This document shows, piece after piece, positions 49,500-64,000 of a stretch of DNA of 64,000 nt. The notes under the pieces are model-generated. The model saw only the letters and a program-made list of their open reading frames with translations, was not told the origin of the DNA and did not search any database. The stretch is from Stappia stellulata (GTDB taxonomy: Bacteria; Pseudomonadota; Alphaproteobacteria; Rhizobiales; Stappiaceae). The stretch spans positions 248,001 to 312,000 of the forward strand of contig NZ_JAIVMF010000001.1 of NCBI RefSeq assembly GCF_020176715.1, read 5' to 3'. The translations under genes were made by a program, and so were the position numbers. Every line of letters begins with the position of its first letter. The stretch's first letter is position 1.

Positions 49500-50665
49500 T
49501 TCAGCCGCTCCAGCACGGACACATAATTGGCGACGGCCGCGCCTCCCATGTTGAACACCCCGGCAAGGCGGGCGTCGTCGAGCTGCATCTCGCCGGCGAC
49601 CCCGGCAAGCTGCATTGCCGCCATCACATGTTGGGACACGCCGGTCGCGCCGATCGGATGGCCCTTGGATTTCAGTCCGCCCGAGGGATTGACCGGCAAC
49701 CGTCCTGTGCGCGTCGAGACGCCCTCGTCGATGACGCGATGCCCCTGCCCGGCCGCCGCCAGCCCCATCGCCTCGTATTCCATCAGCTCGGCGATGGTGA
49801 AACAGTCATGCGTTTCCACGAAGGACAGATCGTCGATGGAGATGCCGGCCGTTTCATAGGCCTTCGTCCAGGCCTGCGCCGCCCCTTCGAAGGAGGTGCG
49901 CGAGCGCCGGCTGAGCGGCAGGAAATCATTGACGTGCTCGGCTGCGCGGAAATAGATCGCGCGCGGTGCGGAGGCGAGAGCCACATCCAGGTTGCACAGC
50001 ACGACGGCCGCCGCGCCATCGGATATCAGCGAGCAGTCGGTCCGCCGCAGCGGTCCGGCAACGACCGGGTTCTTCTCCGAAACCGTGTTGCAGAACTCGA
50101 AGCCGAAATCCTTGCGCATATGCGCGTAAGGATTGCGGACGCCGTTCTCGTGGTTCTTCGCGGAGATGCGGGCGAGACTTTCGCGGCAGTCGCCGTATTC
50201 CTGGAAATAGGCCTGTGCGATGTTTCCGAAGACGCCCGCGAACCCGCCGTCGATGCCGGCTTCTTCCCGGCGATAGGACGCCCCCAGAAGAATATCGCCA
50301 ACCTCAGGGGTCGGCGTTGCAGTCATCTTTTCGACGCCGACGACAAGCACCCGACGTGCGCGGCCGCTCTCGATCTGTCGCAGCCCGGCGTGAAGGGCAG
50401 CCGACCCCGTCGCGCAGGCGTTTTCCACCCGCGTCGCCGGCGTGAACCGCAATGCAGGCTCTGCGAGCGCCACGAGAGAGGCCTGAAAGTCCTGTTTCGA
50501 GAAGCCGTTGTTGAATGCCCCGACGAATATCGCGTCGATCTCGGAAGCGTCCGTTTGGGCATGCGCCAAACAATCCTTGACCACTTCCGCAATCAAATCC
50601 TCTGCTGAATCAGCACCCGACTTACCGAACACTGTATGTGCCCAGCCGGTGATACACGAACCCAT
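49496..50665 (-). CDS. Thiolase (acetyl-CoA acetyltransferase, SCP-x-like)
   Basis: A 389-residue thiolase of the type with a degenerate second half: nucleophilic Cys in RVENACATGSAALHAGL, FVETHDCFTIAE, and the His in GLKSKGHPIGATG. The GHPIGATG and NACATGSA motifs are intact. It probably cleaves a 3-oxoacyl-CoA. It is the first gene of the operon; ATG 50665 is preceded by GGGAGGGG, while an ATG-like start at 50686 has none. Confidence 0.87.
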   Translation of the reverse strand: MGSCITGWAHTVFGKSGADSAEDLIAEVVKDCLAHAQTDASEIDAIFVGAFNNGFSKQDFQASLVALAEPALRFTPATRVENACATGSAALHAGLRQIESGRARRVLVVGVEKMTATPTPEVGDILLGASYRREEAGIDGGFAGVFGNIAQAYFQEYGDCRESLARISAKNHENGVRNPYAHMRKDFGFEFCNTVSEKNPVVAGPLRRTDCSLISDGAAAVVLCNLDVALASAPRAIYFRAAEHVNDFLPLSRRSRTSFEGAAQAWTKAYETAGISIDDLSFVETHDCFTIAELMEYEAMGLAAAGQGHRVIDEGVSTRTGRLPVNPSGGLKSKGHPIGATGVSQHVMAAMQLAGVAGEMQLDDARLAGVFNMGGAAVANYVSVLERLK

Positions 50666-50808
50666 CCGATCCCCTCCCAAGGACACAAGTCACTCGCTCG
50701 CTGATCGAAATATATCGGCACCCAATTAGCTGTTCTTGCCTTTTTGAGCCGCATGTATACGCTTACGCGCATATTTCTCGCGCATTGGTATCGATATGGA
50801 GTTTTTGC

Positions 50809-51270
50809 ATGCAACCGCTTGATGAGACCGACCTGAAGATTCTCCGCGTGCTGCAACTGGACGGCTCGCTCTCCGTCTCGGAGGTCGCCGACCGCGTCGG
50901 CCTGTCCCAGTCCCCCTGCTCGCGCCGCATCAACCGAATGCAGGAGGACGGCGTCATCACGGGCCGTTCGGTGCTGCTCGACCGCCGCAAGCTCGGTTTC
51001 GACGCAACCATCCTCGTGCGGATCAAACTCTCCGGCCACGGGCGCCAGTCGATTTCCGTCTTTCAGGAGGCGGCGATGCGGATCCCGGAGGTTCAGGTCG
51101 TCCAGCTGATGCTCGGGGAATTCGACTTCAACCTGCGTGTGGTCGTCCGAGACATGGATCATTTCCAGACATTGCTGCGCGATAAGCTGGTGATGCTTCC
51201 GGGCCTTCACGAAATCCAGAGCACAGTGATCCTCGAGGAAATGAAGTATACCGCACATCTTCCAATCTGA
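50809..51270 (+). CDS. Lrp/AsnC-family regulator of the thiolase/PPC operon
   Basis: A 153-residue Lrp protein: LDETDLKILRVLQLDGSLSV, SEVADRVGLSQSPCSRRINR, and a RAM domain with LMLGEFDFNLRVVVRDMDHF. It is divergent from the thiolase gene across 143 bases that include AT-rich sequence and a GCGCATATTTCTCGCGCA element (50767-50784). Lrp proteins usually sense amino acids, so the operon substrate may be an amino-acid-derived acid. TGGAG precedes the ATG. Confidence 0.83.
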   Translation: MQPLDETDLKILRVLQLDGSLSVSEVADRVGLSQSPCSRRINRMQEDGVITGRSVLLDRRKLGFDATILVRIKLSGHGRQSISVFQEAAMRIPEVQVVQLMLGEFDFNLRVVVRDMDHFQTLLRDKLVMLPGLHEIQSTVILEEMKYTAHLPI

Positions 51271-51567: not shown

Positions 51568-53160
51568 TCACGGATGGGCGGGCTCAAGGTCCGTTGCGGC
51601 TTTCAGCGCCTGACGGTCGACCTTGCCGGTCGAGGTCTTCGGCAGTTCCGCGACAATCTCGAGGGTCTCCGGTGCCATATAGGCGGGCAGGCTCTCCGAA
51701 AGGTGGCGCTTGAGCGCACGCAGGCTCAGCTCCGCGCCCTCCGTCGTCTCGACGACGGCGGCAAGATAGCGCGTTGCGTCGTCAGCGACCCTGTCGACCA
51801 CCGCGACGGCCGCGACCTCCGGGTGTTTCAGCACCGCTTCCTCGACCTCGCGCAGATTGATGCGATAGCCGCGGATCTTCACCTGCGCATCCCGGCGTCC
51901 GACATAGGCAAGAACCCCGCCCCGGCGGATCTCGACCAGATCGCCGCTGCGGTACAGACGGTCTTCATAATCGTCGTGCACCGGGTTCTGGACGAATTTT
52001 TCGGCGGTCATCTTCGGGTCACCCCAGTAGCCCTTGGCGACGGTGGGGCCGCGCGCGCATAATTCGCCGATGCTGCCGGTTTCCGTCAGGGGGCGGTCGT
52101 TCTCGTCCAGAACGACAACCTCCATGTGCCCGCAGGGCTTTCCGATCGGCAATGGCGCGTCATCGGGAAGATGCTCGATCGCATGGCAGGTCACATCGTT
52201 GATCTCGGTGGCGCCGTAGATGTTGAAATAGCGGGCGCCGGGCAGTTTCTTCATCAGGCCGCGCAGGGCCTGCGGCGGATAGGGCTCGCCGGCGAAGAAC
52301 ACGACCCGAAGCGCGCCAAGGTCCGTCTGCCGCTCCTTGATATGCTTTTCCACGATCATCAGCACGGACGGCACCGACTGCCAGATCGTAATGCGGTTGT
52401 CGGCGATGAATTTCACCAGGTCCACACCGAGAAAACCGATCCCCTGCGGCACCAAGCACACGGTGGCGCCGCGCGCGAGCGTGACATAGAGATCGAAGAG
52501 CGAGAGGTCGAAATGAAACGGCGCATGTGAGGACACCCGGTCGGCCGGGCCGACACCAAACTGCCGCGCCGCCCATTCCACGAAGGCGACGATGTTGCGG
52601 TGGGTGAGCATCACGCCCTTGGGACGCCCGGTCGAACCCGACGTGTAGAGGATATAGGCGAGGTCTCCTTCAAGGGCGTGGCGCGGCGGCGCCGTGCCCG
52701 AGGCCTGGGCGACTTGCGCGGCGGACACGATGCGCACGCTCGCGTCGGCCAGGTCCAGCGGCCTGTCGCCAACCACCACGACCGTGTCCAGCTCGCCGCC
52801 GTCCGCGAGAAGGGTTTCCAGCCGGCCCTGCTTGTTACCGCTCGTGATCAGCACGCGGACACCGCAATCGGCGACGATGAAGGCCATCCGCGCCACCGGG
52901 CCCGTCGGATCGAGCGGCACGCAGACGGCATCGGCCTTCATGATGCCGATCAGGCTGGCAAGCGAGGCGATCGACTTGTCGAGATAGACCCCGACCCGGT
53001 CGCCCCGCTTCACACCGCAGGCCTTCAGCGCGTTGGCGATCCGGTTGCTCTCGGCCATCAGTTCGCCATGCGTCATCGACGCCGCGCCGCAGCTCACCGC
53101 AATCGCACTGGTGCGCAGGGCATGAGCCTCTTCCAGAAGCCGGGGAACGGTGGTCGGCAT
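51568..53160 (-). CDS. Free-standing amino-acid adenylation enzyme (NRPS A-domain type)
   Basis: A 530-residue A domain without condensation or carrier domains. Core motifs: A3 YTSGSTGRPKG (171-181), A4 HFDLSLFDLY with D217 at the position that binds the substrate amino group, A5 NIYGATE (312-318), A7 YRSGDL (402-407), A8 GRRDAQVKIRGYRINLREVE (in part), A10 lysine K512 in PKTSTGKVD. Such enzymes load an amino acid onto a separate carrier protein. One is encoded on the opposite strand at the right edge of this window. The specificity is not readable by eye. It is the last gene of a TRAP-YggS-kinase-like-adenylation run. Confidence 0.85.
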   Translation of the reverse strand: MPTTVPRLLEEAHALRTSAIAVSCGAASMTHGELMAESNRIANALKACGVKRGDRVGVYLDKSIASLASLIGIMKADAVCVPLDPTGPVARMAFIVADCGVRVLITSGNKQGRLETLLADGGELDTVVVVGDRPLDLADASVRIVSAAQVAQASGTAPPRHALEGDLAYILYTSGSTGRPKGVMLTHRNIVAFVEWAARQFGVGPADRVSSHAPFHFDLSLFDLYVTLARGATVCLVPQGIGFLGVDLVKFIADNRITIWQSVPSVLMIVEKHIKERQTDLGALRVVFFAGEPYPPQALRGLMKKLPGARYFNIYGATEINDVTCHAIEHLPDDAPLPIGKPCGHMEVVVLDENDRPLTETGSIGELCARGPTVAKGYWGDPKMTAEKFVQNPVHDDYEDRLYRSGDLVEIRRGGVLAYVGRRDAQVKIRGYRINLREVEEAVLKHPEVAAVAVVDRVADDATRYLAAVVETTEGAELSLRALKRHLSESLPAYMAPETLEIVAELPKTSTGKVDRQALKAATDLEPAHP

Positions 53161-53202
53161 GGTGTCCTCCTGCGGTGCGGTCGGTCCGGTCTGTCCTGCG
53201 TC

Positions 53203-54549
53203 TCAAAGAGCCGGCTGGCGCATCAGATAGGCGAAATACTCGTAGCGCTCGCCGAGGAACCGCTCCGCCTTCGCCCACATGTCTTCCTCGGTGATCGCAT
53301 GGGGGTATTTCTCCCCCACCCGAGAGCGGGCGAAGAGCGGCCGGAGCGTGGTCATTGCGAGGATGTAGAAGAGGTCGTGATCCATCTTGTAGCTCTTGCG
53401 CCGGTCGCCATCCCAGTCGTTGCGGATCGCTTCGCGGTGCTTCTTCAAGAGGAACAGATGCGGGATGAAATAGCCCCAGAGCCGGCGGGACAGCGGGCGG
53501 ATCTCCTCTTCGGGAATGTCGGGAAAATAGCCGCTGATCTTCGCCGTGATCGGATCGAACTCCATCAGGTTTTCCAGCGTGTATTTGTCGAGCGCGGTCG
53601 GATAGCCGATCTTGCCGACCATGCGGTAGATCGCGCTGACGAGATCGCGCCAGGCCTGCATCGCCTTGGCCGGCCCCGGCAGGTGGTTGATGTCCTGCAC
53701 GCTGTCGAGATCGATCAGGAAGAGCTGCTTGCTCTCCACCGAATAGACGAAGTTCCCCCAGTCGCCGGAGTAGCGGTACATCTCCGTCAGCGAGAAATCG
53801 TGCAGCAGCTTTCCGGCCTCGCGGGCGAGCGCCTGGATCACCTTCAGCCGCACGCGCTCGTCGTCCGGATCGCCCTCGATGCCGAGGCTTTCGCGGATGC
53901 CGTCATAGTGGACGTCAAAGGCGGGATCGGTCCCCCGCGTCAGCCCCGCGCCGAACAGGATCTCCGAGATCCGATAGGAGGCCGATCCCGGCGACAGCGT
54001 GATCACCGCGCCCATCGGCTGGCCCTGAAACCGCAGGGTCTCGTCGTATTCGATCACCGCCAGCGGCGCGATGCTCGGGACGCCGTGCTCGATCAGTCGT
54101 TGCGACGACCAGAACTCGCGATGCGCGCGCTCGTGCACGATCCCGCCGATCGGGCTCGGCGAGGAATAGGCGTATTTGTACTCGCCCTCGTTGGAAATGC
54201 CGAAATGCGGATAGGTGACCAGATATTCCAGCAGGTCGGTGAGCGGCGGGACGGGATCGTTGCTCGCGTCGTCATGCAGCTTGTTGGAATATTCCGCATC
54301 GCCTGGCAGGATCGGGTTCCACAGGCCGACGCCCTTGAGCTTGGCGGCATGGAAGGTGACCGAGGGATCGCTCTTCAGCGCCACCGGCTCGTGCAACTGC
54401 TCCCAAGCGCCGCGCCCGCGGCGGGTGAAGGTCGGCACGTGCCCGTTCCAGCTGGCGATATCGAGAAGCCGCCGCCTCTCGGCGTCGGAAATATCCAGCC
54501 CATCGAAGCTGTGGGTCACGGTGTAGTTGAGCTTGTGATGCATGTTCAT
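53203..54549 (-). CDS. Protein of unknown family with a kinase-like fold
   Basis: I do not recognise this 448-residue family. Several features resemble the protein-kinase/aminoglycoside-phosphotransferase fold. K70 is in a beta-strand-like VTFHAAKLKG, and E145 in a helix before a beta strand (ERAHREFWSSQRLIEHGVPS). H250-D251 follow in LLHDFSL. GDWGNFV (D263, N266) resembles a catalytic loop, and LIDLDS (D280, D282) a metal-binding DFG-type site. The remaining 165 residues are mostly helical. It lies between yggS (37 bases) and the adenylation gene (42 bases), so it should act on the same compound, perhaps as an ATP-dependent phosphotransferase. Start ATG 54549; the longer frame lacks support. 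Confidence 0.6.
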   Translation of the reverse strand: MNMHHKLNYTVTHSFDGLDISDAERRRLLDIASWNGHVPTFTRRGRGAWEQLHEPVALKSDPSVTFHAAKLKGVGLWNPILPGDAEYSNKLHDDASNDPVPPLTDLLEYLVTYPHFGISNEGEYKYAYSSPSPIGGIVHERAHREFWSSQRLIEHGVPSIAPLAVIEYDETLRFQGQPMGAVITLSPGSASYRISEILFGAGLTRGTDPAFDVHYDGIRESLGIEGDPDDERVRLKVIQALAREAGKLLHDFSLTEMYRYSGDWGNFVYSVESKQLFLIDLDSVQDINHLPGPAKAMQAWRDLVSAIYRMVGKIGYPTALDKYTLENLMEFDPITAKISGYFPDIPEEEIRPLSRRLWGYFIPHLFLLKKHREAIRNDWDGDRRKSYKMDHDLFYILAMTTLRPLFARSRVGEKYPHAITEEDMWAKAERFLGERYEYFAYLMRQPAL

Positions 54550-54586
54550 GGCAATACGTCCCGAAAAAAGCGGTCGGCGATTGGGG

Positions 54587-55258
54587 TCAGGCGTAGGTGC
54601 GGCTGCCGAAGATCGCCGAGCCGACGCGCACGCTGCTGGCACCGTGGCGAATGGCGGTCTCATAGTCGCCCGACATGCCCATCGAGCGGCGCTTGAGACC
54701 GGTTTCGTCCGCGAGTTTGGCGAGCAGGTCGAAATGCGGCGCCGGGTCCTCGCCGGCGGGCGGAATGCACATCAGCCCCTCGATCTCCAGGCCGTGCACG
54801 TCCTGGCAGCGCGTGACGAAGGCGACCGTCTCGTCCGGGTCGATGCCGGCCTTTTGCGGCTCGCGTCCCGTGTTGACCTGCACATAAAGGCGCGGCGCGC
54901 GGCCCTGCTTGCGGATCTCGCGGGAAAGTTCCGCGGCGAGCTTCTCCCGGTCGACCGTCTCGATGACGTCGAAGAGCGCGACCGCATCGCGGACCTTGTT
55001 GGTTTGCAGCGGGCCGAGCAGGCGAAGCTCAAGATCGGCGAACTCCTGCTTCAGTCCCGGCCATTTGTCGCGCGCCTCCTGGACCTTGTTCTCGCCGAAG
55101 ACGCGCGCGCCCGCCTCGATCACCGGCCGGATCTCGTCCGCGCTCCAGGTCTTGCTCACCGCGACCAGCGTGACCGGGTCGCCCGTGCCGTCGCGGTCCT
55201 TTTCGGCGGCGGCGATTTTCGCCTGCACCGCGTTCAGTCGTTCAACCGATTGGTTCAT
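54587..55258 (-). CDS. YggS/PLPBP-family pyridoxal-phosphate protein
   Basis: A 223-residue YggS-family protein with an alanine-racemase-like barrel: PLP lysine K36 in LVAVSKTWSADEI, FGENKVQEA, LGPLQTNK (HxGxLQxNK relative; here LLGPLQTNK), and GMSGDYETAIRHGASSVRVGSAIFG. The family keeps PLP homeostasis and is usually near cell-division or pilus genes. Here it sits within an operon with a TRAP transporter and an adenylation enzyme, and the usual His of IHxIGxLQxNK is Leu. It may be a specialised paralogue. ATG 55258 is used; ATG 55267 is equally possible. Confidence 0.8.
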   Translation of the reverse strand: MNQSVERLNAVQAKIAAAEKDRDGTGDPVTLVAVSKTWSADEIRPVIEAGARVFGENKVQEARDKWPGLKQEFADLELRLLGPLQTNKVRDAVALFDVIETVDREKLAAELSREIRKQGRAPRLYVQVNTGREPQKAGIDPDETVAFVTRCQDVHGLEIEGLMCIPPAGEDPAPHFDLLAKLADETGLKRRSMGMSGDYETAIRHGASSVRVGSAIFGSRTYA

Positions 55259-55322
55259 GATCCTCATCCATCCATTCTTCTGTTCCTCCACCCCTCGAGC
55301 CAGACGGCGACGGGCGGAGCGT

Positions 55323-56606
55323 CTAGCCGGCCACCCCGAACAGCCTCGGGACGGCGAGCGTGATTGCCGGAAAGGTCGCCGCCAGAACGACGATCACGAT
55401 ATGCGCGCAGATGAAGGGCACGGCTTCCCGCACCGCGCCCTCGTATGGCGCGTTGGCGATGCGCGCCGCCGTCATCAGCGTGAGGCCGACCGGCGGGGTG
55501 ATGTTGCCGAGGTTCAGGGCAAGCAGCATCACCATGCCGGCGTGCAGCGGATCGAAGCCGAGCTCCACCAGGGCGGGCGCGAGAACGGGCACCGCGATGA
55601 TGATCGCCGGCAGCACGTCGATGAACATGCCGATGACGATCAGCAGCGCCGCCACCGCCAGGATCTGGACATGCGGACTGTCGCTCATCGTCGAGATGGT
55701 CTCGGCCGCGTGGCGGGCGATGCCGGAGCGCGTCACATACCAGCCAAGTACGTTCGACGCGCCGAGCAGCAGGAACACCACGCCGCTGAAACTCACCGTG
55801 GAGACAAGCGCCTCCCAGAGATCCCGGCGCGACAGGCGGCGATAGGCCACGCCGCCGAGCACGAGCGCGTAGATGCAGGCGATCACCGAGGCTTCCGTCA
55901 CCGTCGTCAGGCCGGTGAGAACGCCGACGATGATCACCAGCGGAATGCCCATCGCGGCAAGCGCACCGATACCGGTGCGCAAGATCACCTGGAAGCGGAC
56001 CGGCCCATGGGCGCGGTATCCGCGCCGCCAGGACACGACACTGCTGACGGCGAGCATTCCGACCCCCATCAGGACCCCGGGAAGGATCCCGGCGGCGAAA
56101 AGCCCGAGAATGGAAATGTCCCTCAGGGTCGCGGCATAGGCGATCATGATGATGCTCGGCGGGATGATCGGGCCGACCATCGCCGAACAGGCCGTCACCG
56201 CCGCGCAATAGGAGGCGCTGTAGCCCTCGCGTCGCATCGCGGGGATCAGCGTGCGCCCGATCGCCGCCGTCTCCGTGACCGCCGCGCCGGTCAGCCCGGC
56301 GAACATCAGGCAGGTGGTGACATTGACGTGCGACAGGGCGCCGGGCACCCGCCCGAACAGGCTGCTTGCAAAGGCGATCAGCCGGTCCGTCAGGCCGGCG
56401 CGGTTCATGATCTCGGCGGTGATGATGAAATAGGGAACGGCGATCAGGACGTAGCCGGACACGCCCGAATAGAAGCGGTCCGGCAGAATGCTCAGGAAAT
56501 CCGCGCCGCCGATGGAGACGGCCCCGGCAAGGCCGGCAGCGGTCAGCACAAGGCCGAGCGGCAGCCCGATCACCATCAGGAAGACGAAGACGAAAGTGGC
56601 GCTCAT
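55323..56606 (-). CDS. TRAP transporter large permease (DctM), adenylation operon
   Basis: A 427-residue DctM subunit: FVFVFLMVIGLPLGLVLTAAG, LIAVPYFIITAEIMNRAG, SAMVGPIIPPSIIMIAYAA, and GMFIDVLPAIIIAVPVLAP. Around twelve helices. ATG 56606 overlaps the dctQ stop by four bases. It ends 64 bases before yggS, so uptake and the three enzymes downstream are likely co-transcribed. Confidence 0.88.
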   Translation of the reverse strand: MSATFVFVFLMVIGLPLGLVLTAAGLAGAVSIGGADFLSILPDRFYSGVSGYVLIAVPYFIITAEIMNRAGLTDRLIAFASSLFGRVPGALSHVNVTTCLMFAGLTGAAVTETAAIGRTLIPAMRREGYSASYCAAVTACSAMVGPIIPPSIIMIAYAATLRDISILGLFAAGILPGVLMGVGMLAVSSVVSWRRGYRAHGPVRFQVILRTGIGALAAMGIPLVIIVGVLTGLTTVTEASVIACIYALVLGGVAYRRLSRRDLWEALVSTVSFSGVVFLLLGASNVLGWYVTRSGIARHAAETISTMSDSPHVQILAVAALLIVIGMFIDVLPAIIIAVPVLAPALVELGFDPLHAGMVMLLALNLGNITPPVGLTLMTAARIANAPYEGAVREAVPFICAHIVIVVLAATFPAITLAVPRLFGVAG

Positions 56607-57289
56607 CGTGTCGTCTCCAGTGACCGGCTTGCCGGCGCGGACGCCGGCTTGGCCTCCGCCTCCGCCTCCGGTCCGGCATAGCCGCCCGGGGTCCAAACCA
56701 TGCCGCCGTCGGTTGCAGCCGCAAGCTCGCCGTCGAGCGCCAGGTCCGCGTCGCGCTCCTCCAGCAACGCCACGCCGTCGACGAGATGCAGGCACAGCAC
56801 GACGCCGGCGACCGGAACGGCGGCCGCGGTCCAGCGATGCGAGACCTGGATCGTGTCTGAGACGATGAAGAGATGCGTCGCGCCGAGGAAGAACTCGGCT
56901 CCATACCAGACCAGCGCCACCGCGAAGATCGCCACGGCCGCCAGATTGACCGCCTGCGCGATCCGGCGCCCCCAGCCGGGCAAGGCCCGAGCGGCGACCA
57001 GGATCGCGATATGCTCGCCGTATTTGAAGGCGACGGTGATGCTGAGCATGCCGAACCAGGGAAGGAACAGGCGCAGGATGGAGGGGCGTGTGTTGGCGTA
57101 GAGCCACGCAAGAATGCCCTCGTCGAACATCTCGCGCCGGCCGGCGGCCGAGAGCGCGGAGGCCAGAAGCTCCAGCGCCACGCCAAGGGCGGAGACGAAC
57201 AGCATCGCAAGCAGCAACACCGCGCACACGGCAATGGTCGCCTTGTTCGCGACATCGCTTATCCGGTGGAGACGGTGTCTCAGGGTCAT
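56603..57289 (-). CDS. TRAP transporter small permease (DctQ), enlarged
   Basis: A 228-residue DctQ subunit, longer than the usual 160-190. It has helices from ATIAVCAVLLLAMLFVSALG onward, an inserted loop (AGRREMFDEGILAWLYANT), the family segment TVAFKYGEHIAILV, and a C-terminal Ala/Glu-rich tail of about 40 residues (PEAEAEAKPASAPASRSLE). ATG 57289 is chosen; the frame further upstream has no ribosome site. Confidence 0.8.
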   Translation of the reverse strand: MTLRHRLHRISDVANKATIAVCAVLLLAMLFVSALGVALELLASALSAAGRREMFDEGILAWLYANTRPSILRLFLPWFGMLSITVAFKYGEHIAILVAARALPGWGRRIAQAVNLAAVAIFAVALVWYGAEFFLGATHLFIVSDTIQVSHRWTAAAVPVAGVVLCLHLVDGVALLEERDADLALDGELAAATDGGMVWTPGGYAGPEAEAEAKPASAPASRSLETTR

Positions 57290-57437
57290 TGCGAAAGGGT
57301 CCTTGATCGTGCACCGGATGGCGGTTTCGCAGACAGTTGCGCGACACAAGCGCCAGAACGGGCCTCAGAACCGGGCTTCAGAACCGGGCGCCGGCAGTCC
57401 CGCTTCTCAGGGACGCGCGGAGTTCCCGCCGCGCGTT

Positions 57438-57457
57438 CGCTCGTCACCCGACGAGCG
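57438..57457 (-). other. Intercistronic hairpin between TRAP binding-protein and permease genes
   Basis: CGCTCGT (57438-57444) pairs exactly with ACGAGCG (57451-57457) around a 6-base loop, inside the 191-base gap between the binding-protein gene and dctQ. No T-run. Same location as in the other SBP-first operons of the window. Confidence 0.5.
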
Positions 57458-57480
57458 GGACGTGTCGCTGCGGACCGTCG

Positions 57481-58668
57481 TCAGTCCAGATACCGCTCGA
57501 GATTTGCCTGTCGCTGGCTTTGATGAATGCGATCGATCTCGGCGCGCATGTCATCGAACAGCTTCGCCTTCGGGCCGAATTCCTCCACGAGCCAGTCGCG
57601 GTAGATCGGTTGCGCGATGTCGCGCATCCGCATCTTTTCCGCGTCCGAAAGAACGTGGCATTCCTTGAATTTCTCGCAGGAGTTCACCCAGCCGACCACG
57701 GTGATCTGCGTGGCGATGCCATGGGCCATCGCCACAGCCTCGCGGGCGGAGGCGACGATGATTTCCTGATAGTCCCGCGGCAGGTCCTTGAACCACGCCT
57801 CGCTGACGCTCCAGGTGATCGTGTTGTACACGTGCCCGCTCCAGGTCGTGTAGTCGGTCACGTCATAGAGCTTGAAGATGTCGTTGACGCCCGGCGCATG
57901 GAAATGCCCATCGACGAGACCCGTTGCCAGCCCGGTCTGCAACTCGCCCCAGGGCAAGGGCGTGGGCGCGGCGCCGAGCGCCCGCATGATCGTCATATGG
58001 GCCTGGTTTTCCTCGACGCGAATGCGCATCCCCTTGAGGTCCTCGACCGTCTTGATCAGCCGCTTGTTGTTGGCGAAGGCAACAAAGCCGCCGCCATCGT
58101 CGAGCGTGCCGAGATAGCGCAGCCCGCTTTCGGCGACCATCGGCTTCATGAACTCCGCAAACCACGCGGAATCGAAGAAGGCCCAGGCCGTGCGGTAGTC
58201 GGGAAAGAGAAACGGCGCCGTGATCATTTCGTAGTTGCGGTAGAAGGATGCCTGCGTTCCCGATCCCAGCATCACCGACTGAATGGTCTTTCCCGCACGC
58301 GCCTGCTGGGCGGCCTCGACCTCGCCACCGAGCGCGCCATTGCCGAAGACCTCGACCTGGACCGCGCCCCCGGTTGCGGTTTCGACGAGCTGCTCGAAAT
58401 GCTTCAGCGCAGGCGCTGTCTCGTTGTTGGTGAGATCGTCGGGATAGAGGTGGGCGATGGTCATCGTGTAGTCCGCCGCCTGCGCCGCGGAGGTAACGCC
58501 GAACAGCGCCATCAGCAGCCCGGCCAGCCACCCGCCGCGGAAATGCGGCCTGGCCGACGTCCCGGGTTCCGGACCGCCGCGATCGTCGTGGACCGAGCTC
58601 TCGAACAGGTTGCAGGCCCGACCGGTCTCGCCGCTCGAGGGGCAAGACATTCGCACGGCGTCGATCAT
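57481..58668 (-). CDS. TRAP transporter substrate-binding protein (DctP), adenylation operon
   Basis: A DctP-family protein of up to 395 residues. A signal peptide (GGWLAGLLMALFGVTSAAQA) starts about 45 residues in, so the N-terminal part before it (rich in polar residues and Cys) may not be translated or may be an unusual leader; no better ATG lies nearer. Family motifs: HLYPDDLTNNETAPALKHFEQ, GALGGEVEAAQQARAGK, KGMRIRVEENQAHM and LATGLVDGHFHAPG. Several cysteines (WVNSCEKFKECH) near the C-terminus are uncommon in DctP proteins. Confidence 0.82.
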   Translation of the reverse strand: MIDAVRMSCPSSGETGRACNLFESSVHDDRGGPEPGTSARPHFRGGWLAGLLMALFGVTSAAQAADYTMTIAHLYPDDLTNNETAPALKHFEQLVETATGGAVQVEVFGNGALGGEVEAAQQARAGKTIQSVMLGSGTQASFYRNYEMITAPFLFPDYRTAWAFFDSAWFAEFMKPMVAESGLRYLGTLDDGGGFVAFANNKRLIKTVEDLKGMRIRVEENQAHMTIMRALGAAPTPLPWGELQTGLATGLVDGHFHAPGVNDIFKLYDVTDYTTWSGHVYNTITWSVSEAWFKDLPRDYQEIIVASAREAVAMAHGIATQITVVGWVNSCEKFKECHVLSDAEKMRMRDIAQPIYRDWLVEEFGPKAKLFDDMRAEIDRIHQSQRQANLERYLD

Positions 58669-58838
58669 TGACCCCTCCAGGTTCAGAAGACCAGCTGCAG
58701 TTTCAGCCTCTTCAAAACCTATTCAGCAACCAATGGTCGGTCTAATTCTATTTTTCTATTTCTGGTAACACTTGGGACTTGCCTGTCGGCCGGCGTCTGT
58801 CCCTCAAAAAACGGGTCTCAAAACACACAGCGCGCGCA

Positions 58839-58868
58839 ACGACCGGGACCGTTTCCGATCCCGGTCGT
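58839..58868 (-). terminator. Hairpin, probable ilvD terminator
   Basis: ACGACCGGGA (58839-58848) and TCCCGGTCGT (58859-58868) form a perfect 10-bp stem with a 10-base loop, 31 bases after the ilvD stop on the minus strand. A T-rich stretch comes only about 30 bases later, so termination may be partial and read-through into the TRAP genes is possible. Confidence 0.5.
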
Positions 58869-58898
58869 CGTGCCCGCCGTGGGGCATCGCTTGCCGCG

Positions 58899-60572
58899 TC
58901 AACCGCTGACGGCGCCTTTGCTGGCCGAGGTCGCGAGTTGCGAGTATTTGCTCAGCACGCCCGACTTGTAGCGGGCCTCGGGCTGGCGCCAGGCGGCCGC
59001 CCGCTTGTCGAGTTCCGCCTGATCGACGTTGAGCTGCAGGAGCTGCGACGGTGCGTCGATGGTGATGCTGTCGCCCTCCTGAACAAGCGCGATCGGGCCG
59101 CCGTCGAAGGCCTCGGGCGTGACGTGGCCAACGAGCATGCCCCAGGAGCCGCCGGAGAACCGGCCGTCGGTGATCAGCCCCACCTTGTCGCCCAGACCGC
59201 GCCCGATGATCGCCGAGGTCGGTGCCAGCATCTCGGGCATTCCCGGACCGCCTCTCGGTCCGAGATAGCGCAGGACCAGCACGTCGCCCGGCCGGATCCG
59301 GTCCGACTGGATGGCGTCCATGGCCGACTGCTCGTCGTCGAAGACCCGCGCCGGACCGGTGATCGAGGTGGACTTGAGGCCGGTGATCTTCGCCACCGAC
59401 CCTTCCGGCGCGAGGTTGCCGCGCAGGATCGCGAGATGGCCTTCCGGATAGAGCGCCTTGTCGATCGGGCGGATGACATCCTGATCCGCCGGCGGCGCAT
59501 CCGGCACGCTCTCCAGTTCCTCCGCCAGCGTCCGGCCGGTGATCGTCATGCAATCGCCATGCAGCAGGCCCGCATTCAGAAGGATCTTGAGCACCTGCGG
59601 GACCCCGCCCGCCTTGTGCAGATCGACCGCCATATATTTGCCCGAGGGCTTGAGGTCGCAGATCACCGGCACCTTGCGGCGCACCCGCTCGAAATCGTCG
59701 AGGGTCCACTCGACCTCGGCGGCATGGCAGATCGCGAGGTAATGCAGGACGGCATTGGTGGAGCCGCCGGTCGCCATCACCAGCGCGATGGCGTTCTCGA
59801 CGCTCTTGCGCGTGACGATGTCACGCGGCTTCAAGCCCTTCTTGACCGCCTCGACCAGCACCCGGGCCGACTGGGCCGTGGAGTCCCTCTTCTCCTCATC
59901 GATGTTCGCCATCGTCGAGGAATAGAACAGCGCCATGCCAAGCGCCTCGAAGGAGGAACTCATGGTGTTGGCCGTATACATGCCGCCGCAGGCCCCGGTG
60001 GTCGGGCACGCATTGCGCTCGATGCCCTCGAAATCCTCCTGGCTCATGCGCCCGGCCTTGATCGCGCCCACCGCCTCGAAGGCGGAAATGACGGAAAGGT
60101 CCTCGCCCTTCCATTTGCCCGGCTTGATCGTGCCGCCATAGACGTAGATCGCCGGCACATTCGCCCGCACGATCCCGATCATGCCGCCCGGCTTGTTCTT
60201 GTCGCAGCCGCCAAGCACCAGAACACCGTCCATCCACTGGCCCTGCACCGTCGTCTCGACGCAATCGGCGATGACCTCACGGGAAATAAGGGAGTATTTC
60301 ATCCCTTCCGTGCCCATTGCCATTCCGTCGGAAATCGTCGGAACGCCGAAAATCTGCGGGTTTGCACCAGCGTCCTTGATGGCCGCAACGGCAATGTCGG
60401 CAAGCGGCTGAATGCCCGCATTGCACGGCGTGATGGTCGAATGACCATTGGCAACACCGATCATGGGATTGTCGAAATCTTCCTTCGTATAGCCGAGGCC
60501 GTAAAACATGGCCCTGTTCGGCGAACGCTCGATCCCTTGCGAAATCGTCTTCGAACGCTCGTTGTATGGCAC
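58899..60572 (-). CDS. ilvD: Dihydroxy-acid dehydratase
   Basis: A 557-residue IlvD/Edd-family Fe-S dehydratase: [31 protein letters not shown] and [16 protein letters not shown] hold two of the cluster-binding cysteines, and the end has [17 protein letters not shown]. It converts dihydroxyisovalerate and dihydroxymethylvalerate to 2-oxoacids in Val/Ile synthesis. The start is GTG 60572 (VPYNERSKT) with AAGGAGG seven bases upstream. The position between LysR and the TRAP/adenylation run may be chance, or it may be a pathway-specific copy; the residues look like a normal IlvD. Confidence 0.92.
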
Positions 60573-60984
60573 CCGATATCCTCCTTGCGGGACTGTTTCG
60601 TTGTCGTCATCCGCCGACCGCACGCCCCCGGGCTTCCCCGATTTCGGCCGTCGCCGGGCGACGCCCCCCCCTTTCCGGTCGAGCCCCGACCGCGCGGCGC
60701 GAAACCGCCGGCGCACGCCCGCGATACCTGGCGGAGGCCCGAGCGCCCACCCGGCGCGCGGTCCGCCGCTCTCCAGCGCAGCTCCGTCAGGTCCACCAGC
60801 TGTGTCAGGGGTGTACCGTCCCTGCCGCTTTCCCGCTTCGTCCCGTGGAAGCATTTGAGAAATAGACAGATTTCAGGAAACTACCGCGCCCCTCCATATT
60901 TCAGAAATATATTTGTCTTTATCCATTAGGTCGAAATTCATATCAAACAAGCGCCGGACGACAGCCGTGTCGCCCGGCTGGAAC
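60573..60984. other. Intergenic region between lysR and ilvD with palindromes
   Basis: 412 bases without a convincing gene. The part next to ilvD is GC-rich leader with the ilvD ribosome site. About 300 bases upstream is an AT-rich stretch with ATATTTCAGAAATAT (60896-60910), a perfect 7-bp inverted repeat around one base, and a related TTTCAGGAAA (60871-60880) about 28 bases away. These look like a promoter with operator for ilvD; no binding protein can be assigned. Confidence 0.45.
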
Positions 60985-61992
60985 CTATCCCCCGTGGCCG
61001 TTGAGGACCACGCCGGGGGAGCCGCCAACGGGCGGACTTGCGGCGCAAGCGCCCACGGGGTCGCCCGGATCTCCGGCCGGGGCCGCCGCGTGCTCGCCGA
61101 TGGCCTGAGAAATCTCGACAAGCCGGGTCACGGTCGGCGAGGGATCGTCGCGCCGCCACACCAGCCCGGTCTCGATCATCGGCGGCTCGCCGTCGAGATC
61201 GACATAGACCACGCCCTGCCGGCCGAGCCGCTTCAGGGAGCCCGGCACCAGCGCGATCCCCATCCCGGCGGACACCAGGCTGATGATCGTCTGCATCTGG
61301 ATGGCCTCCTGCCCGATGGTCGGCTGGATCCCGTTGGTGACGAAATAGGTGGTGATGATGTCGTGGAAGGCCGGCGCGCTTCGTCGCGGGAACAGCACGA
61401 GAGGCGCCTCCGCGACATCCTGAAGGCGCAGCCGTCCCTGTGCCAGTTCGATGCGCCCGCGACGCACCCACTCCTCCGGCACGGCCGCGACCAGCGGCTC
61501 GCGCAACAACGGCAGATAGGCAAGCGAGGCATGCAGCGTCGCGTGCAAGGGGATGATCAACCCGGCGTTGATCTCGCCCTGGAGCAGCGCTTCGACCTGA
61601 AGGTCGCTCGTCATTTCCTTCAAGGAGACCTTCACGTCGGGATAGGTCGCGCCATAGTGGCTGATCAGATCCGGCAGGAGGTTGTAATCCGCCGTCGTCA
61701 CGAAGCCGAGCTTCAGGCTTCCGATCTCGCCGCGCGAAAGCTGCCTGGCCAGCCCGGGCAGCGCCTCGACATCCTCCAGCAGTTTGGTCACATGCGACAG
61801 AAGGTGTTCCCCGACGGGCGTCAGGGCGACATTGCGTTTCGTTCGCTTGAAGAGCGTGACCGAGAGTTCCTCCTCCAGAGCAAGGATGGCCTGACTCAAC
61901 GGCGGCTGCGTCATGCAGAGCCGCTCGGCCGCGCGACCGAAATGCAACTCCTCCGCAACCGTCACGAAAAACTTAAGCCTCCGAAGATTCAT
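60985..61992 (-). CDS. LysR-family transcriptional regulator
   Basis: A 335-residue LysR protein: N-terminal helix-turn-helix MNLRRLKFFVTVAEELHFGR, AAERLCMTQPPLSQAI, ALEEELSVTLFKR, and a periplasmic-binding-like effector domain with GSLKLGFVTTADYNLLPDLI. The unusual C-terminal tail (about 30 residues rich in Gly/Ala/Pro) extends past the normal end. It is divergent from the acyl-CoA dehydrogenase/carrier-protein genes and faces a T-N11-A-type inverted repeat at 62120-62140. ATG 61992 fits the family start. Confidence 0.87.
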   Translation of the reverse strand: MNLRRLKFFVTVAEELHFGRAAERLCMTQPPLSQAILALEEELSVTLFKRTKRNVALTPVGEHLLSHVTKLLEDVEALPGLARQLSRGEIGSLKLGFVTTADYNLLPDLISHYGATYPDVKVSLKEMTSDLQVEALLQGEINAGLIIPLHATLHASLAYLPLLREPLVAAVPEEWVRRGRIELAQGRLRLQDVAEAPLVLFPRRSAPAFHDIITTYFVTNGIQPTIGQEAIQMQTIISLVSAGMGIALVPGSLKRLGRQGVVYVDLDGEPPMIETGLVWRRDDPSPTVTRLVEISQAIGEHAAAPAGDPGDPVGACAASPPVGGSPGVVLNGHGG

Positions 61993-62463
61993 TGCTTGCC
62001 TTCTTCTATTTTGGGATCGCCTACCAATGGACGATCTTTTCATTCGAAGCACGTCTTTTTCCGCACGCAATCATATATTTTTGAACCTTCAGGGAACGCC
62101 TTATTAAGGTTGCATTTTAGATTAGTTTCGCGTGCTAATCGCAAATATAATACACGCAATATGATTTTGTCACTCGTATGGCGATAACAGCAATCGGAAC
62201 TATAAATATAAAATTTATATAAACATGCATTTGCGTCTATCTGGAATGCAACCAAATCAAAACGAATGAGGCGAAGAGTTGTCCATCATCAAGTTCAGAA
62301 CCAAACAAGATAACTCTTCCGACAATGGTATATTCTTAAAATTGTAAATTATGATTTGTCTTTATGAAACGAGCGGAAATCTGAGGCATTGCCGGGCACG
62401 ACCCACGACCCCACCGAAACGCCCTCTCCCGCAAGGATGCAACCAAGCCGACAGGAGCGACCA
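61993..62463. other. AT-rich divergent regulatory region
   Basis: 471 bases between lysR and the acyl-CoA dehydrogenase gene with a clearly lower GC content than the genes around it, and no gene I can support. It holds a LysR-type repeat (62120-62140) and AT-rich palindromic sequence such as TATAAATATAAAATTTATATA-like bases near 62203-62222. The composition suggests either a foreign origin or a strongly regulated promoter region. Confidence 0.55.
62120..62140. promoter_or_regulatory. LysR-type binding site candidate
   Basis: GATTAG (62120-62125) and CTAATC (62135-62140) are exact inverted repeats separated by nine bases, giving the ATTAG-N9-CTAAT form of the LysR T-N11-A box. It lies about 130 bases before the lysR start and 325 before the acyl-CoA dehydrogenase start. 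Confidence 0.6.
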
Positions 62464-63612
62464 ATGGATTTCAGTTTCTCTCCCGAGCAAGACGCCTTCA
62501 AAGACAAGGTCACGGGGTTCGCGCAGGCGGAGTTGAACGAGGGCGACCTGAAGCAACGCGATGCCGATTGCATCCTGTCCCGGGACTTGTGGAAGAAGAT
62601 CGCCGACTTCGGAATTCTCGGCCTGCCCTTCGACAAGGACTACGGCGGGAGCGAACAGGACATCATCACCACCGTTCTGGCGATGGAGGCGCTTGGCTAC
62701 GGCTGCCGCGACAACGGCCTGCTGTTCAGCATGAACGGGCAGATGTGGACCGTGCAGATGCCGATCGCGCAGTTCGGGACCGACGCGCAGAAGGACAAAT
62801 ATCTCCGCGGCCTGATCAAGGGCGAGTTGATCGGCGCGCATGGCATCACCGAGGCCGAGGCCGGCTCCGACGTGATGGCGCTCGGCACCACCGCGACGCG
62901 CGACGGCGACGACTATGTGCTGAACGGCGCGAAGGTGTTCTGCACCAACGGGCCGGTCGCCGACGTCTTCGTGATCTTCGCCACCGTCGACAAGAGCGCC
63001 GGGTCCCTCGGCCTCACCGGCTTCGTCGTGGAACGCGACACGCCCGGCCTCATCGTCAGCGAGAACCGCAAGAAGATGGGCCTGCGCACCTCTCCGATGG
63101 CCTGGCTGACGCTGGAGGACTGCCGCGTTCCGGTCACCGCACGCATCGGCAAGGAAGGCCAGGGCGGGCGGATCTTCAACAACTCCATGGAGTGGGAACG
63201 GGCCTCGATCCTGGCCAATCTCGTCGGCGCGATGGAGCATCAGGTCGAGGAGTGCATCCGCCACGCCAACAAGCGCACCCAGTTCCGCAAGCCCATCGGC
63301 AAGTTCCAGTCCGTCTCCAACCGCATCGTCGACATGAAGCTCAGGCACGAGACGTCCCGGCTGCTGCTCTACAAGGTCGCCTGGCTGAAGAAGACCAAGG
63401 GCAGCGCGGCGATGGAGGCGGCGCTCGCCAAGCTCTACCTCAGCGAGGCCTGGGTCGCGTCGTGCCAGAACTCCGTCGTGATCCACGGCGGCTACGGCTA
63501 CATGGCCGACCATGAGGTCGAACGCGATTTCCGCGACGCGGTCGGAAGCCTGCTCTATTCGGGGACATCCGACATCCAGCGCACCATCGCGGCCCGTGCC
63601 CTCGGGCTTTGA
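62464..63612 (+). CDS. Acyl-CoA dehydrogenase family protein, carrier-protein-linked type
   Basis: A 382-residue FAD enzyme: ITEAEAGSDVM, FCTNGPVADVFVIFATVD, RTQFRKPIGKFQ and HGGYGYMADHEVERDFRD. The usual C-terminal catalytic Glu is missing: the motif reads YSGTSDIQ with S366. A Glu is instead available at E245 in SMEWERASIL, the position used by isovaleryl-CoA dehydrogenase. The MEWER pattern is one I associate with dehydrogenases that act on carrier-protein-bound acyl groups (FkbI-like). The next gene encodes an acyl carrier protein, which supports that. AGGAG precedes ATG 62464. Confidence 0.82.
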   Translation: MDFSFSPEQDAFKDKVTGFAQAELNEGDLKQRDADCILSRDLWKKIADFGILGLPFDKDYGGSEQDIITTVLAMEALGYGCRDNGLLFSMNGQMWTVQMPIAQFGTDAQKDKYLRGLIKGELIGAHGITEAEAGSDVMALGTTATRDGDDYVLNGAKVFCTNGPVADVFVIFATVDKSAGSLGLTGFVVERDTPGLIVSENRKKMGLRTSPMAWLTLEDCRVPVTARIGKEGQGGRIFNNSMEWERASILANLVGAMEHQVEECIRHANKRTQFRKPIGKFQSVSNRIVDMKLRHETSRLLLYKVAWLKKTKGSAAMEAALAKLYLSEAWVASCQNSVVIHGGYGYMADHEVERDFRDAVGSLLYSGTSDIQRTIAARALGL

Positions 63613-63722
63613 GCAATGTCTTCAATAGTATAAATCACAATAAATCCCGAAATGCATATCAGTCTATATGAATATAATCTGAGCGATTAATTGACTTGAT
63701 CGGGGTTATACGTATCATTTAC

Positions 63723-63764
63723 TGAAGTTTATTCCAGTAAATTCGAAAAACGGAATGAACTTCA
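63723..63764. promoter_or_regulatory. Long inverted repeat upstream of the carrier-protein gene
   Basis: TGAAGTTTATTCC (63723-63735) and GGAATGAACTTCA (63752-63764) pair at 12 of 13 positions around 16 bases. TTTACTG and CAGTAAA form a second, overlapping 7-bp inverted repeat (63719-63725, 63735-63741 region). It is in an AT-rich 287-base gap before the carrier-protein gene and could be an operator or an mRNA hairpin. Confidence 0.5.
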
Positions 63765-63899
63765 TTCAGGGCAATCGCATCGAACGCCGCGTTGGCAACG
63801 CGGGGAGCTTGCCCCGCCGGCGAAGGTCCGAGGGTCCGGCCCGGTGCCGCTTCCGGTCGCGAATGCCGCCCGGCCGCCAGTTTGCAGGAGGAGACCGAC

Positions 63900-64000
63900 A
63901 TGGACGCGCAGACGGTAGAACAAGACGACGTTCACAAGACGATCTACGACTATCTGATTGAAAACTCCGGCGTGAACGTCTCCGGGGGGATCGATCCCGA
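63900..64000 (+). CDS. Acyl/peptidyl carrier protein, N-terminal part (cut by the window end)
   Basis: An AGGAGG site and seven bases precede ATG 63900. The 33 visible residues (MDAQTVEQDDVHKTIYDYLI, then ENSGVNVSGGIDP) look like helix I and the first loop of an acyl carrier protein (IYDYLIEN followed by a variable loop before the DLLESGLLDS motif). The Ser that carries phosphopantetheine lies beyond the window. Adjacent to a carrier-type acyl-CoA dehydrogenase this is the likely partner. A different small protein cannot be excluded from 33 residues. Confidence 0.6.
   Translation, partial: MDAQTVEQDDVHKTIYDYLIENSGVNVSGGIDP

What the first reader, a model, noticed from the sequence alone, without database searches (positions are those of the whole stretch)
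51568..64000. Candidate new carrier-protein pathway: adenylation enzyme, kinase-like protein, YggS, TRAP importer, acyl-CoA dehydrogenase and carrier protein
One end of the region has a TRAP importer followed within 64, 37 and 42 bases by yggS, a kinase-like gene and a free-standing A domain. About 10 kb away, divergent across an AT-rich region beside a LysR gene, are a dehydrogenase with FkbI-like features and the start of a carrier protein. A domain, carrier and dehydrogenase are the parts needed to load an amino acid and oxidise it as a thioester, as in prolyl-carrier or extender-unit cassettes, but there are no condensation or ketosynthase genes in view. Coupling this to a TRAP importer suggests tethered catabolism or the making of a small signal. 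I know of no described system with this set.
Basis: partly seen in the sequence, partly recalled or inferred. Interest (0 to 1): 0.78.

Follow-up and report, generated by a model that had tools for sequence, protein, structure and literature searches.

The report
Rare amino-acid-loading gene cluster in Stappia
A rare, tightly conserved set of about fourteen genes in marine Stappia bacteria looks like a pathway that hooks an unusual amino acid onto a carrier protein, oxidises it and builds it into an unknown small molecule, with duplicate copies of two housekeeping genes that may supply it or protect the cell from it.

Summary
Left: IlvD-TRAP-YggS-kinase-like-A domain. Right: acyl-CoA dehydrogenase-carrier protein, continuing beyond the window into a B12 radical-SAM protein, two KASIII-like synthases and an ECH2 protein. 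All 14 genes are syntenic in 11 of 11 fetched Stappia relatives (one cut by a contig end). They recur in a Mesorhizobium and, rearranged, in a Salinarimonadaceae MAG, where the dehydrogenase starts 15 bases behind the kinase-like gene. The radical-SAM marker is rare: 12 of 14 genus genomes, 1 of 146 Mesorhizobium-group genomes, only the window's own genome in class (385) and phylum (398) samples. The dehydrogenase groups with prolyl-ACP dehydrogenases (AnaB, PigA), but the A domain lacks the proline code. IlvD and YggS are second, locus-specific copies. Best reading: an undescribed pathway that loads a polar, non-proline amino acid on a carrier protein, oxidises it and condenses it. Substrate, product and the kinase-like role are unknown. 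Boldest open reading: the extra dihydroxy-acid dehydratase is a self-resistance enzyme.

The parts
51568..53160 (-). Free-standing amino-acid adenylation (A) domain, 530 aa; pocket code D-L-F-Q-F-A-I-D-V-K
   Evidence: TIGR01733 387 bits, cutoff 317; PDB matches: linear gramicidin synthase A 434 bits, L-proline--[prolyl-carrier protein] ligase 6o6e 268 bits; code
53203..54549 (-). Kinase-like protein, 448 aa, no database family; invariant AAKLKG, HRE, GDWGNF, IDLDS motifs
   Evidence: no family; motifs invariant in 5 of 5 aligned; 12 of 14 genus genomes
54587..55291 (-). YggS/PLPBP family protein, second copy in the genome
   Evidence: TIGR00044 162 bits, cutoff 106; other copy 59% identical at G000:C8:86261
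55323..56606 (-). TRAP transporter large subunit DctM
   Evidence: PF06808 343.5 bits
56603..57349 (-). TRAP transporter small subunit DctQ
   Evidence: PF04290
57481..58668 (-). TRAP solute-binding protein DctP
   Evidence: PF03480; NF037995 147 bits, cutoff 50; ligand unknown
58899..60854 (-). Dihydroxy-acid dehydratase IlvD, locus-specific second copy (conserved part starts near residue 97)
   Evidence: NF002068 838/644 and TIGR00110 737/618; housekeeping copy of a different type at G000:C1:572084-573904
60985..62070 (-). LysR-type regulator
   Evidence: PF00126 + PF03466
62071..62463 (.). AT-rich divergent intergenic region, candidate regulatory site
   Evidence: 34-35% GC at 62100-62399
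62464..63612 (+). Acyl-CoA-dehydrogenase-type protein, probable aminoacyl-ACP dehydrogenase
   Evidence: PDB best 4irn prolyl-ACP dehydrogenase 441 bits; PigA model 418 bits, cutoff 500; tree
63900..64000 (+). Start of carrier protein (92 aa, to 64178 in the continued contig); GILDSLGI
   Evidence: PF00550; best NCBIfam AmcB 43.5 bits, cutoff 80. Continues outside the window as radical SAM 64226-65950, KSa 66096-67085, KSb 67100-68110, ECH2 68124-69221 and an MFS transporter at about 69389-71011 = L006:7890-9512

Best explanation
The two divergent operons, which meet at a LysR gene and continue past the window, are one dedicated carrier-protein pathway. Shown: a conserved, co-travelling gene set with the stated families. 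Inferred: (1) the A domain activates an amino acid that is not plain proline and loads it on the small ACP; (2) the AnaB/PigA-type dehydrogenase oxidises the ring or side chain of the ACP-bound amino acid; (3) the KASIII-like pair, one with a Cys-His-Asp and one with a Ser/Cys-His-Asp signature, condenses or transfers the acyl group; (4) the B12 radical-SAM protein methylates or rearranges it; (5) ECH2 hydrates or hydrolyses the thioester, and where present the MFS protein exports the product. TRAP imports an acidic precursor or takes the product back, the kinase-like protein probably phosphorylates precursor or product, YggS guards the PLP pool, and the extra IlvD either feeds the precursor or replaces an inhibited housekeeping enzyme.
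For: Synteny of all 14 genes in 11 of 11 fetched Stappia relatives, one of them cut by a contig end inside the A domain. Kinase-like and radical-SAM genes are both missing in the same 2 of 14 genus genomes. Same set in Mesorhizobium sp. Root554. In a Salinarimonadaceae MAG the dehydrogenase starts 15 bases behind the kinase-like gene, ACP-radicalSAM-KSa-KSb lie on the same 44.8-kb contig, and an A domain (50%) is elsewhere in that assembly. Dehydrogenase on the carrier-linked side of a 100/100 branch, with a Microvirga gene that stands beside a proline-code A domain as nearest neighbour at moderate support, 85/93. ACP serine motif GILDSLGI in 12 of 12 Stappia, KSb motifs in 12 of 12 Stappia plus two outgroups. 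Locus-specific second copies of IlvD and YggS.
Against: No substrate, product or enzyme activity is known. A domain (52-60%), KSa (55-71%), ACP (52-74%) and ECH2 (45-49%) have drifted far in the eight more distant Stappia. ECH2, LysR and the A domain are not found on the MAG contig. The MFS gene is only a fragment in S. stellulata and gave no match in L041, Mesorhizobium or the MAG locus. A TRAP importer is unusual for biosynthesis. A LysR gene survives where the rest is gone, so it may not be dedicated. The loss in the two negative genomes is of the whole block, so it does not test single genes. The kinase-like name has no statistical support. No curated model for PigA, RedW, AmcB, TIGR04190 or NF005308 reaches its cutoff.
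Confidence: 0.72

Rival explanations
1. Tethered catabolism: TRAP imports an acid or amino acid, the A domain fixes it on the ACP, and dehydrogenase, ECH2 and thiolase-fold enzymes degrade it.
For: TRAP importer in all 11 Stappia relatives, in Mesorhizobium and in the MAG, and a second TRAP set inserted in Mesorhizobium; ECH2 passes the 3-hydroxyisobutyryl-CoA hydrolase subfamily model (280.5 bits, cutoff 274); LysR beside it.
Against: Dehydrogenase lies on the side of carrier-linked ones and not with four other ACADs of the same genome; a B12 radical-SAM enzyme and a KASIII pair are not typical of catabolism (general knowledge); MFS transporter at the operon end in 6 of 7 Stappia loci.
Confidence: 0.15
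2. Plain prolyl/pyrrolyl cassette: proline is loaded and oxidised to pyrroline or pyrrole as in anatoxin or prodigiosin.
For: 4irn, a prolyl-ACP dehydrogenase, is the best PDB match of the dehydrogenase; A domain 41% identical to a proline-code A domain next to such a dehydrogenase.
Against: Code D-L-F-Q-F-A-I-D-V-K against D-L-L/F-Y-L-A-L-V-C-K; Q278, D330 and V331 are kept in 9 of 9 aligned Stappia, Mesorhizobium and the MAG. PigA cutoff not reached.
Confidence: 0.15
3. Two unrelated neighbouring operons kept together by chance in Stappia.
For: G579 and G588 lack the whole block, so absence is not independent for each gene.
Against: Both halves recur together in Mesorhizobium and the MAG, the only other lineages in which a close radical-SAM relative was found, and in the MAG one right-hand gene is inside the left operon. 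The kinase-like gene was not searched for in the wider genome samples, only in the genus, three handles, plasmids and viral contigs.
Confidence: 0.05
4. Methoxymalonyl-ACP-like extender-unit cassette (FkbG-K type) for a PKS.
For: ACAD + ACP side by side.
Against: No FkbH/HAD-IIIC or PKS family hit among the downstream ORFs scanned up to L006:18101; an amino-acid type A domain is present.
Confidence: 0.03

Closest known systems
AnaC-AnaD-AnaB (anatoxin starter) and PigI-PigG-PigA / RedM-RedO-RedW (prodiginine) prolyl-carrier oxidation cassettes (gene names of the pig/red sets recalled)
   Same: Free-standing A domain, small carrier protein and an acyl-CoA-dehydrogenase-type enzyme on the same side of the tree; for AnaC/AnaD/AnaB the reactions are summarised in PMC3252866 (passages).
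   Different: A-domain pocket is not the proline code; followed by a KASIII-like pair and a B12 radical-SAM protein instead of modular PKS; TRAP, kinase-like, YggS and IlvD attached.
KASIII-like acyltransferases/synthases CerJ, ChlB3, DpsC
   Same: Cys and GHxxxxD in KSb, matching the C-H-D triad described for ChlB3 and CerJ (PMC9573744, passages); Ser at the nucleophile position in KSa in 11 of 12 Stappia, DpsC also having Ser (same paper, as Ser-His-His).
   Different: Encoded as a pair; best NCBIfam model is NF005308 but far below its cutoff (154.6 and 88.5 against 315).
Cispentacin type II PKS-like system (AmcB-H)
   Same: Small ACP is nearest, weakly, to AmcB (43.5 bits, cutoff 80); an adenylating enzyme plus a two-subunit synthase acting on one ACP (PMC10698177, passages).
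   Different: AmcH loads 2-oxoglutarate and AmcF/G are KS-CYF; here an amino-acid A domain and KASIII-like enzymes.
TIGR04190 B12-binding/radical-SAM family
   Same: B12-binding domain and CxxxCxxC (the Pfam radical-SAM hit, 28.2 bits, is just under its cutoff of 29.5); 390.6 bits over almost full length.
   Different: Below the family cutoff of 500; no assigned function that I know of (recalled).
astD / aspterric acid self-resistance DHAD
   Same: A second DHAD gene inside a likely biosynthetic locus, with a separate housekeeping DHAD (concept from PMC11528067, passages).
   Different: Here the product is unknown, inhibition untested, and the two DHADs are of different types rather than near copies; entrance-channel residues were not compared.

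Membership tests
Prolyl-ACP oxidation cassette (AnaC/D/B, PigI/G/A) | free-standing amino-acid A domain | tested here: met
   TIGR01733 387/317; D at 235-position and K at 517-position (GrsA numbering recalled)
Prolyl-ACP oxidation cassette (AnaC/D/B, PigI/G/A) | carrier protein with phosphopantetheine serine motif | tested here: met
   PF00550 28.8/20.8; DSL motif in 12 of 12 Stappia, Mesorhizobium and MAG
Prolyl-ACP oxidation cassette (AnaC/D/B, PigI/G/A) | proline pocket code | tested here: not met
   DLFQFAIDVK, DIFQFSIDVK, DLFQLAIDVK against DLLYLALVCK/DLFYLALVCK in reference loci
Prolyl-ACP oxidation cassette (AnaC/D/B, PigI/G/A) | dehydrogenase grouping with carrier-linked ones, with the WE glutamate | tested here: met
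   100/100 branch; glutamate in alignment, its role as base recalled
Prolyl-ACP oxidation cassette (AnaC/D/B, PigI/G/A) | curated PigA / RedW model cutoff | tested here: not met
   418.4/500 and 389.5/650
Prolyl-ACP oxidation cassette (AnaC/D/B, PigI/G/A) | oxidation of aminoacyl-ACP | not testable with these tools
   needs enzyme assay
KASIII with C-H-D triad (CerJ/ChlB3) | Cys, His, Asp at the expected positions | tested here: met
   KSb GGCAS and GHVQESD in 12 of 12 Stappia and both outgroups; assigned by motif and spacing by eye, not by structure or by aligning CerJ/ChlB3
TIGR04190 B12 radical SAM | curated cutoff | tested here: not met
   390.6/500
FkbG-K methoxymalonyl-ACP cassette | FkbH-type HAD-IIIC enzyme nearby | tested here: not met
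   no such family hit among downstream ORFs scanned
Dihydroxy-acid dehydratase | curated cutoffs | tested here: met
   838/644 and 737/618
Self-resistance DHAD | extra copy in the cluster plus separate housekeeping copy | tested here: met
Self-resistance DHAD | insensitive to the cluster product, housekeeping copy sensitive | not testable with these tools
   product unknown
YggS/PLPBP | TIGR00044 cutoff | tested here: met
   162/106
Protein/aminoglycoside-type kinase fold | profile match to any kinase family | tested here: not met
   AlphaFold single-sequence model unusable, pLDDT 37
Protein/aminoglycoside-type kinase fold | Lys, Glu, Asp/Asn, Asp motif order | tested here: inconclusive
   AAKLKG, HRE, GDWGN, IDLDS invariant in 5 of 5, judged by eye from recalled motif logic

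The most novel reading that the evidence does not exclude
The locus makes an amino-acid-derived antimetabolite that blocks dihydroxy-acid dehydratase (branched-chain amino acid synthesis) and burdens PLP; the cluster carries its own insensitive DHAD and its own PLP-guarding YggS as self-resistance, and builds the compound by oxidising a novel, non-proline amino acid on a carrier protein, with a KASIII-like pair and a B12 radical-SAM enzyme. It would be a bacterial counterpart of aspterric acid/astD with a new chemistry.
Probability: 0.15. Interest if true: 0.88.

Novelty: new variant of a known kind. Interest (0 to 1): 0.62.

Why it matters
Carrier-bound oxidation of amino acids is a known trick, but the cases I know (recalled) use mainly proline. 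Here a cousin of that cassette has a changed, conserved pocket and is wired to a KASIII-like pair, a B12 radical-SAM enzyme of unknown function and a kinase-like protein that matches no family. The set is compact, present in 12 of 14 sampled genomes of the genus, several of them from strains (record titles), and so directly testable. If the second IlvD is a resistance enzyme, it points to the target of the product before the product is known.

Tried and rejected
Fold of the kinase-like protein: AlphaFold on the single window sequence gave pLDDT 37 and pTM 0.26, so no fold search was run. No relative of it was found in plasmids at E<=1e-3 or viral contigs, and none of the radical-SAM protein in plasmids at E<=1e-10. 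The plasmid search with KSb gave 59 records, all under 60% identity and 23.5-28.6% in the 30 listed, not followed. Sugar-acid dehydratase reading of IlvD: missed cutoffs (L-arabinonate 419/882, NF004784 441/539), so true DHAD is preferred. DctP ligand: only general TRAP matches, best 115 bits; nothing can be said. Fkb-type extender cassette: rejected. Acyl-CoA ligase, thiolase and Lrp to the left as pathway members: an Lrp gene at 79-98% identity is beside the locus in 9 of 11 relatives. Mesorhizobium has only a 32% match, but it is a true Lrp-type gene in the same place next to the A domain. I left Lrp out; this is open. Siderophore genes to the right: no match in the Mesorhizobium locus L070, so counted as a separate neighbour.

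Literature: none of the listed titles or abstract starts of searches describes this gene set; the lists were capped, and (4 of 5 terms: free-standing adenylation, TRAP transporter, acyl carrier protein, radical SAM, acyl-CoA dehydrogenase) gave 0 papers. The library is open-access only. PMC12997852 (passages and section 16) lists an antiSMASH region 'PKS-like, ectoine, NRPS-independent-siderophore' of 14.3 kb in a Stappia; I think that is the right-hand end of this locus plus its siderophore/ectoine neighbour, but I did not look at that genome.


Full report
Check of the observation. The window is bases 248001-312000 of the first contig of a 4.5-Mb genome. It sits in the genus Stappia by its relatives: the best named matches of its radical-SAM protein are a MAG at 100% and Stappia stellulata at 97%. 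The divergent region beside LysR is 34-35% GC.

What follows the window. The contig continues (L006). Behind the dehydrogenase (62464-63612) and carrier protein (63900-64178) come a protein with B12-binding and radical-SAM domains, two KASIII-like proteins and an ECH_2 protein, all on the + strand with gaps of 13-145 bases after the ACP, then an MFS transporter. Beyond it is a minus-strand block with a 2OG-Fe(II) oxygenase, an IucA/IucC siderophore synthetase, a lysine/ornithine monooxygenase and an ectoine-synthase-like gene.

Linkage. In the genus sample the kinase-like and the radical-SAM genes are each in 12 of 14 genomes and absent from the same two. I fetched all 11 other positive genomes; in 11 of 11 the order A domain-kinase-YggS-DctM-DctQ-DctP-IlvD-LysR | ACAD-ACP-radicalSAM-KSa-KSb-ECH2 is the same, one being cut by a contig end inside the A domain. 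In the two negative genomes the block is missing, and a LysR gene (76% DNA identity) sits within about 1 kb of a homologue of window 46147-46874, an SDR gene. Because the absence is of the whole block, those two genomes are not independent evidence for each gene.

Outside Stappia. A scan of a collection of 84,980 species genomes with two conserved heptapeptides gave 10 loci: 7 Stappia-type (six so labelled, one MAG labelled Rhodobacteraceae), Mesorhizobium sp. Root554 (81%), a Salinarimonadaceae MAG (80%) and a distant Thermodesulfobacteriota protein (34%). This scan finds only loci that keep a heptapeptide, so more distant ones may be missed. Sampled whole genomes gave 1 of 385 in the class and 1 of 398 in the phylum, both the window's own; in the order 6 of 199 had a match at E<=1e-10, of which 4 are full-length (all Stappia, the window's own among them) and 2 are short and 27% identical; and 1 of 146 in the Mesorhizobium group, Root554 itself. 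Root554 has the whole set in the same order plus a second TRAP set between LysR and the dehydrogenase. In the MAG, IlvD-DctP-DctQ-DctM-YggS-kinase-dehydrogenase form one run, the dehydrogenase starting 15 bases behind the kinase-like gene, with ACP-radicalSAM-KSa-KSb on the same 44.8-kb contig 26.5 kb further on. No A domain, LysR or ECH2 is found on that contig by tblastn, but an A domain at 50% identity lies on another contig, far above the next match in that genome (500 against 130 bits). The distant Thermodesulfobacteriota locus has none of the other genes in its 7.5 kb, and its genome has no kinase-like match. The position of the dehydrogenase in the MAG is the strongest single sign that the two operons act together.

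Dehydrogenase and A domain. The dehydrogenase's best solved relative is 4irn, prolyl-ACP dehydrogenase (441 bits, next 316). In an unrooted tree of 16 proteins, a 100/100 branch puts it with nine dehydrogenases from named plasmid records and apart from four other acyl-CoA dehydrogenases of its own genome (one of these a flagged long branch); its nearest neighbour, at moderate support (85/93), is a Microvirga gene 3 bases behind an A domain with the code DLFYLALVCK. The nine were picked by similarity to this protein, so the tree shows nearness, not function. In the stretches fetched, an A domain or AMP-binding gene is annotated or readable within about 7 kb of 8 of the 9 (all but the Pseudoalteromonas one). 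The A domain gives D-L-F-Q-F-A-I-D-V-K; over 9 Stappia (the window and 8 of the 11 relatives) only position 236 (L in 8, I in 1) and 322 (I in 8, V in 1) vary. Mesorhizobium has DIFQFSIDVK and the MAG DLFQLAIDVK. Brasilonema, used as a check of the mapping, gives DLLYLALVCK, the code that I recall for free-standing proline A domains. Q at 278 and D at 330 therefore argue for a polar or cationic amino acid. This is inference.

Condensing pair. KSb keeps GGCAS and GHVQESD in 12 of 12 Stappia and both outgroups; KSa keeps the H and D, with Ser at the nucleophile position in 11 of 12 Stappia and Cys in the twelfth, in Mesorhizobium and in the MAG. A Cys-His-Asp triad with this spacing is described for ChlB3 (C113, H296, D301) and CerJ; the same paper gives Ser-His-His for DpsC (PMC9573744, passages). 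Whether the pair makes C-C bonds or transfers acyl groups cannot be told.

Second copies. The genome has a separate IlvD of the type that I recall from E. coli (G000:C1:572084-573904), while the locus copy passes the curated DHAD cutoffs and is nearest in the PDB to 6nte. Likewise YggS has a 59% identical partner elsewhere. In the two cluster-free genomes only distant IlvD-family matches remain (34-36% over longer stretches, 48-49% over a C-terminal one), and YggS genes at 60% or less. A dedicated DHAD in a biosynthetic locus can be precursor supply or self-resistance; the fungal precedent is astD (PMC11528067, passages). YggS proteins have no known enzyme activity and act in PLP homeostasis (PMC9605639, passages). 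Pyrroline-5-carboxylate inactivates PLP (PMC9492674, start of abstract in a search listing), so a guard for PLP would make sense if the dehydrogenase makes a pyrroline-like product. Both points are inference.

Transporter at the end. The MFS gene is intact in 6 of 7 Stappia loci, a fragment in the seventh (S. stellulata), and without a match in L041, Mesorhizobium and the MAG locus. It is therefore an accessory, not a core gene.

Selection. Against three relatives every one of the 14 genes differs most at the third codon position; IlvD, ACAD, radical-SAM, KSb and kinase-like are among the most conserved, and A domain, ACP, KSa, DctQ and ECH2 the least.

Verdict. It works most likely like a prolyl-carrier oxidation cassette, but it fails the proline-code test, so I do not file it as one. 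It is a new variant of a known kind, with three parts of unknown function, and its product is unknown.

Noticed in passing
L006:9641-15176 (right of the locus): Minus-strand block with 2OG-Fe(II)/WelO5-like oxygenase, IucA/IucC siderophore synthetase, lysine/ornithine monooxygenase and a 322-aa cupin plus ectoine-synthase-like protein; the oxygenase or siderophore gene is also beside the locus in L014, L039 and L041.
   Followed up: partly
L006:7890-9512: MFS transporter behind ECH2, intact in 6 of 7 Stappia loci, only a fragment in S. stellulata (L065), no match in L041, Mesorhizobium or the MAG locus.
   Followed up: partly
L088:4129-7058: A second TRAP transporter set (DctM, DctP confirmed by Pfam) inserted between LysR and the dehydrogenase in Mesorhizobium sp. 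Root554.
   Followed up: partly
window 50785-51270 and L088:17678-18127: Lrp/AsnC-type regulator next to the A domain, opposite strand; kept at 79-98% in 9 of 11 Stappia relatives, and a 32% identical Lrp-type gene stands in the same place in Mesorhizobium. It may be a second regulator of the locus.
   Followed up: partly
G579:C1:736452-738645 and G588:C1:92830-95026: In the two Stappia genomes without the cluster, a LysR gene (76% DNA identity) lies close to a homologue of window 46147-46874: possibly the empty or deleted site.
   Followed up: partly
window 46125-50686: SDR reductase, PCC-domain protein, acyl-CoA ligase-like and thiolase-like ORFs (Pfam run only on the first two; the last two named from their translations); another TRAP DctM at 42947-44308. 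Looks catabolic.
   Followed up: no
L100:7426-10143 (Microvirga sp. VF16 megaplasmid, unannotated in PLSDB): A proline-code A domain directly followed by the closest outside dehydrogenase (52.6%).
   Followed up: partly
L101:7721-11898 (Roseovarius pelagicus plasmid): ACP-dehydrogenase-methyltransferase-A domain set with another unusual code, DIFFIGSMCK; a dehydrogenase of the same identity (49.7%) is on a Pseudohalocynthiibacter plasmid.
   Followed up: no
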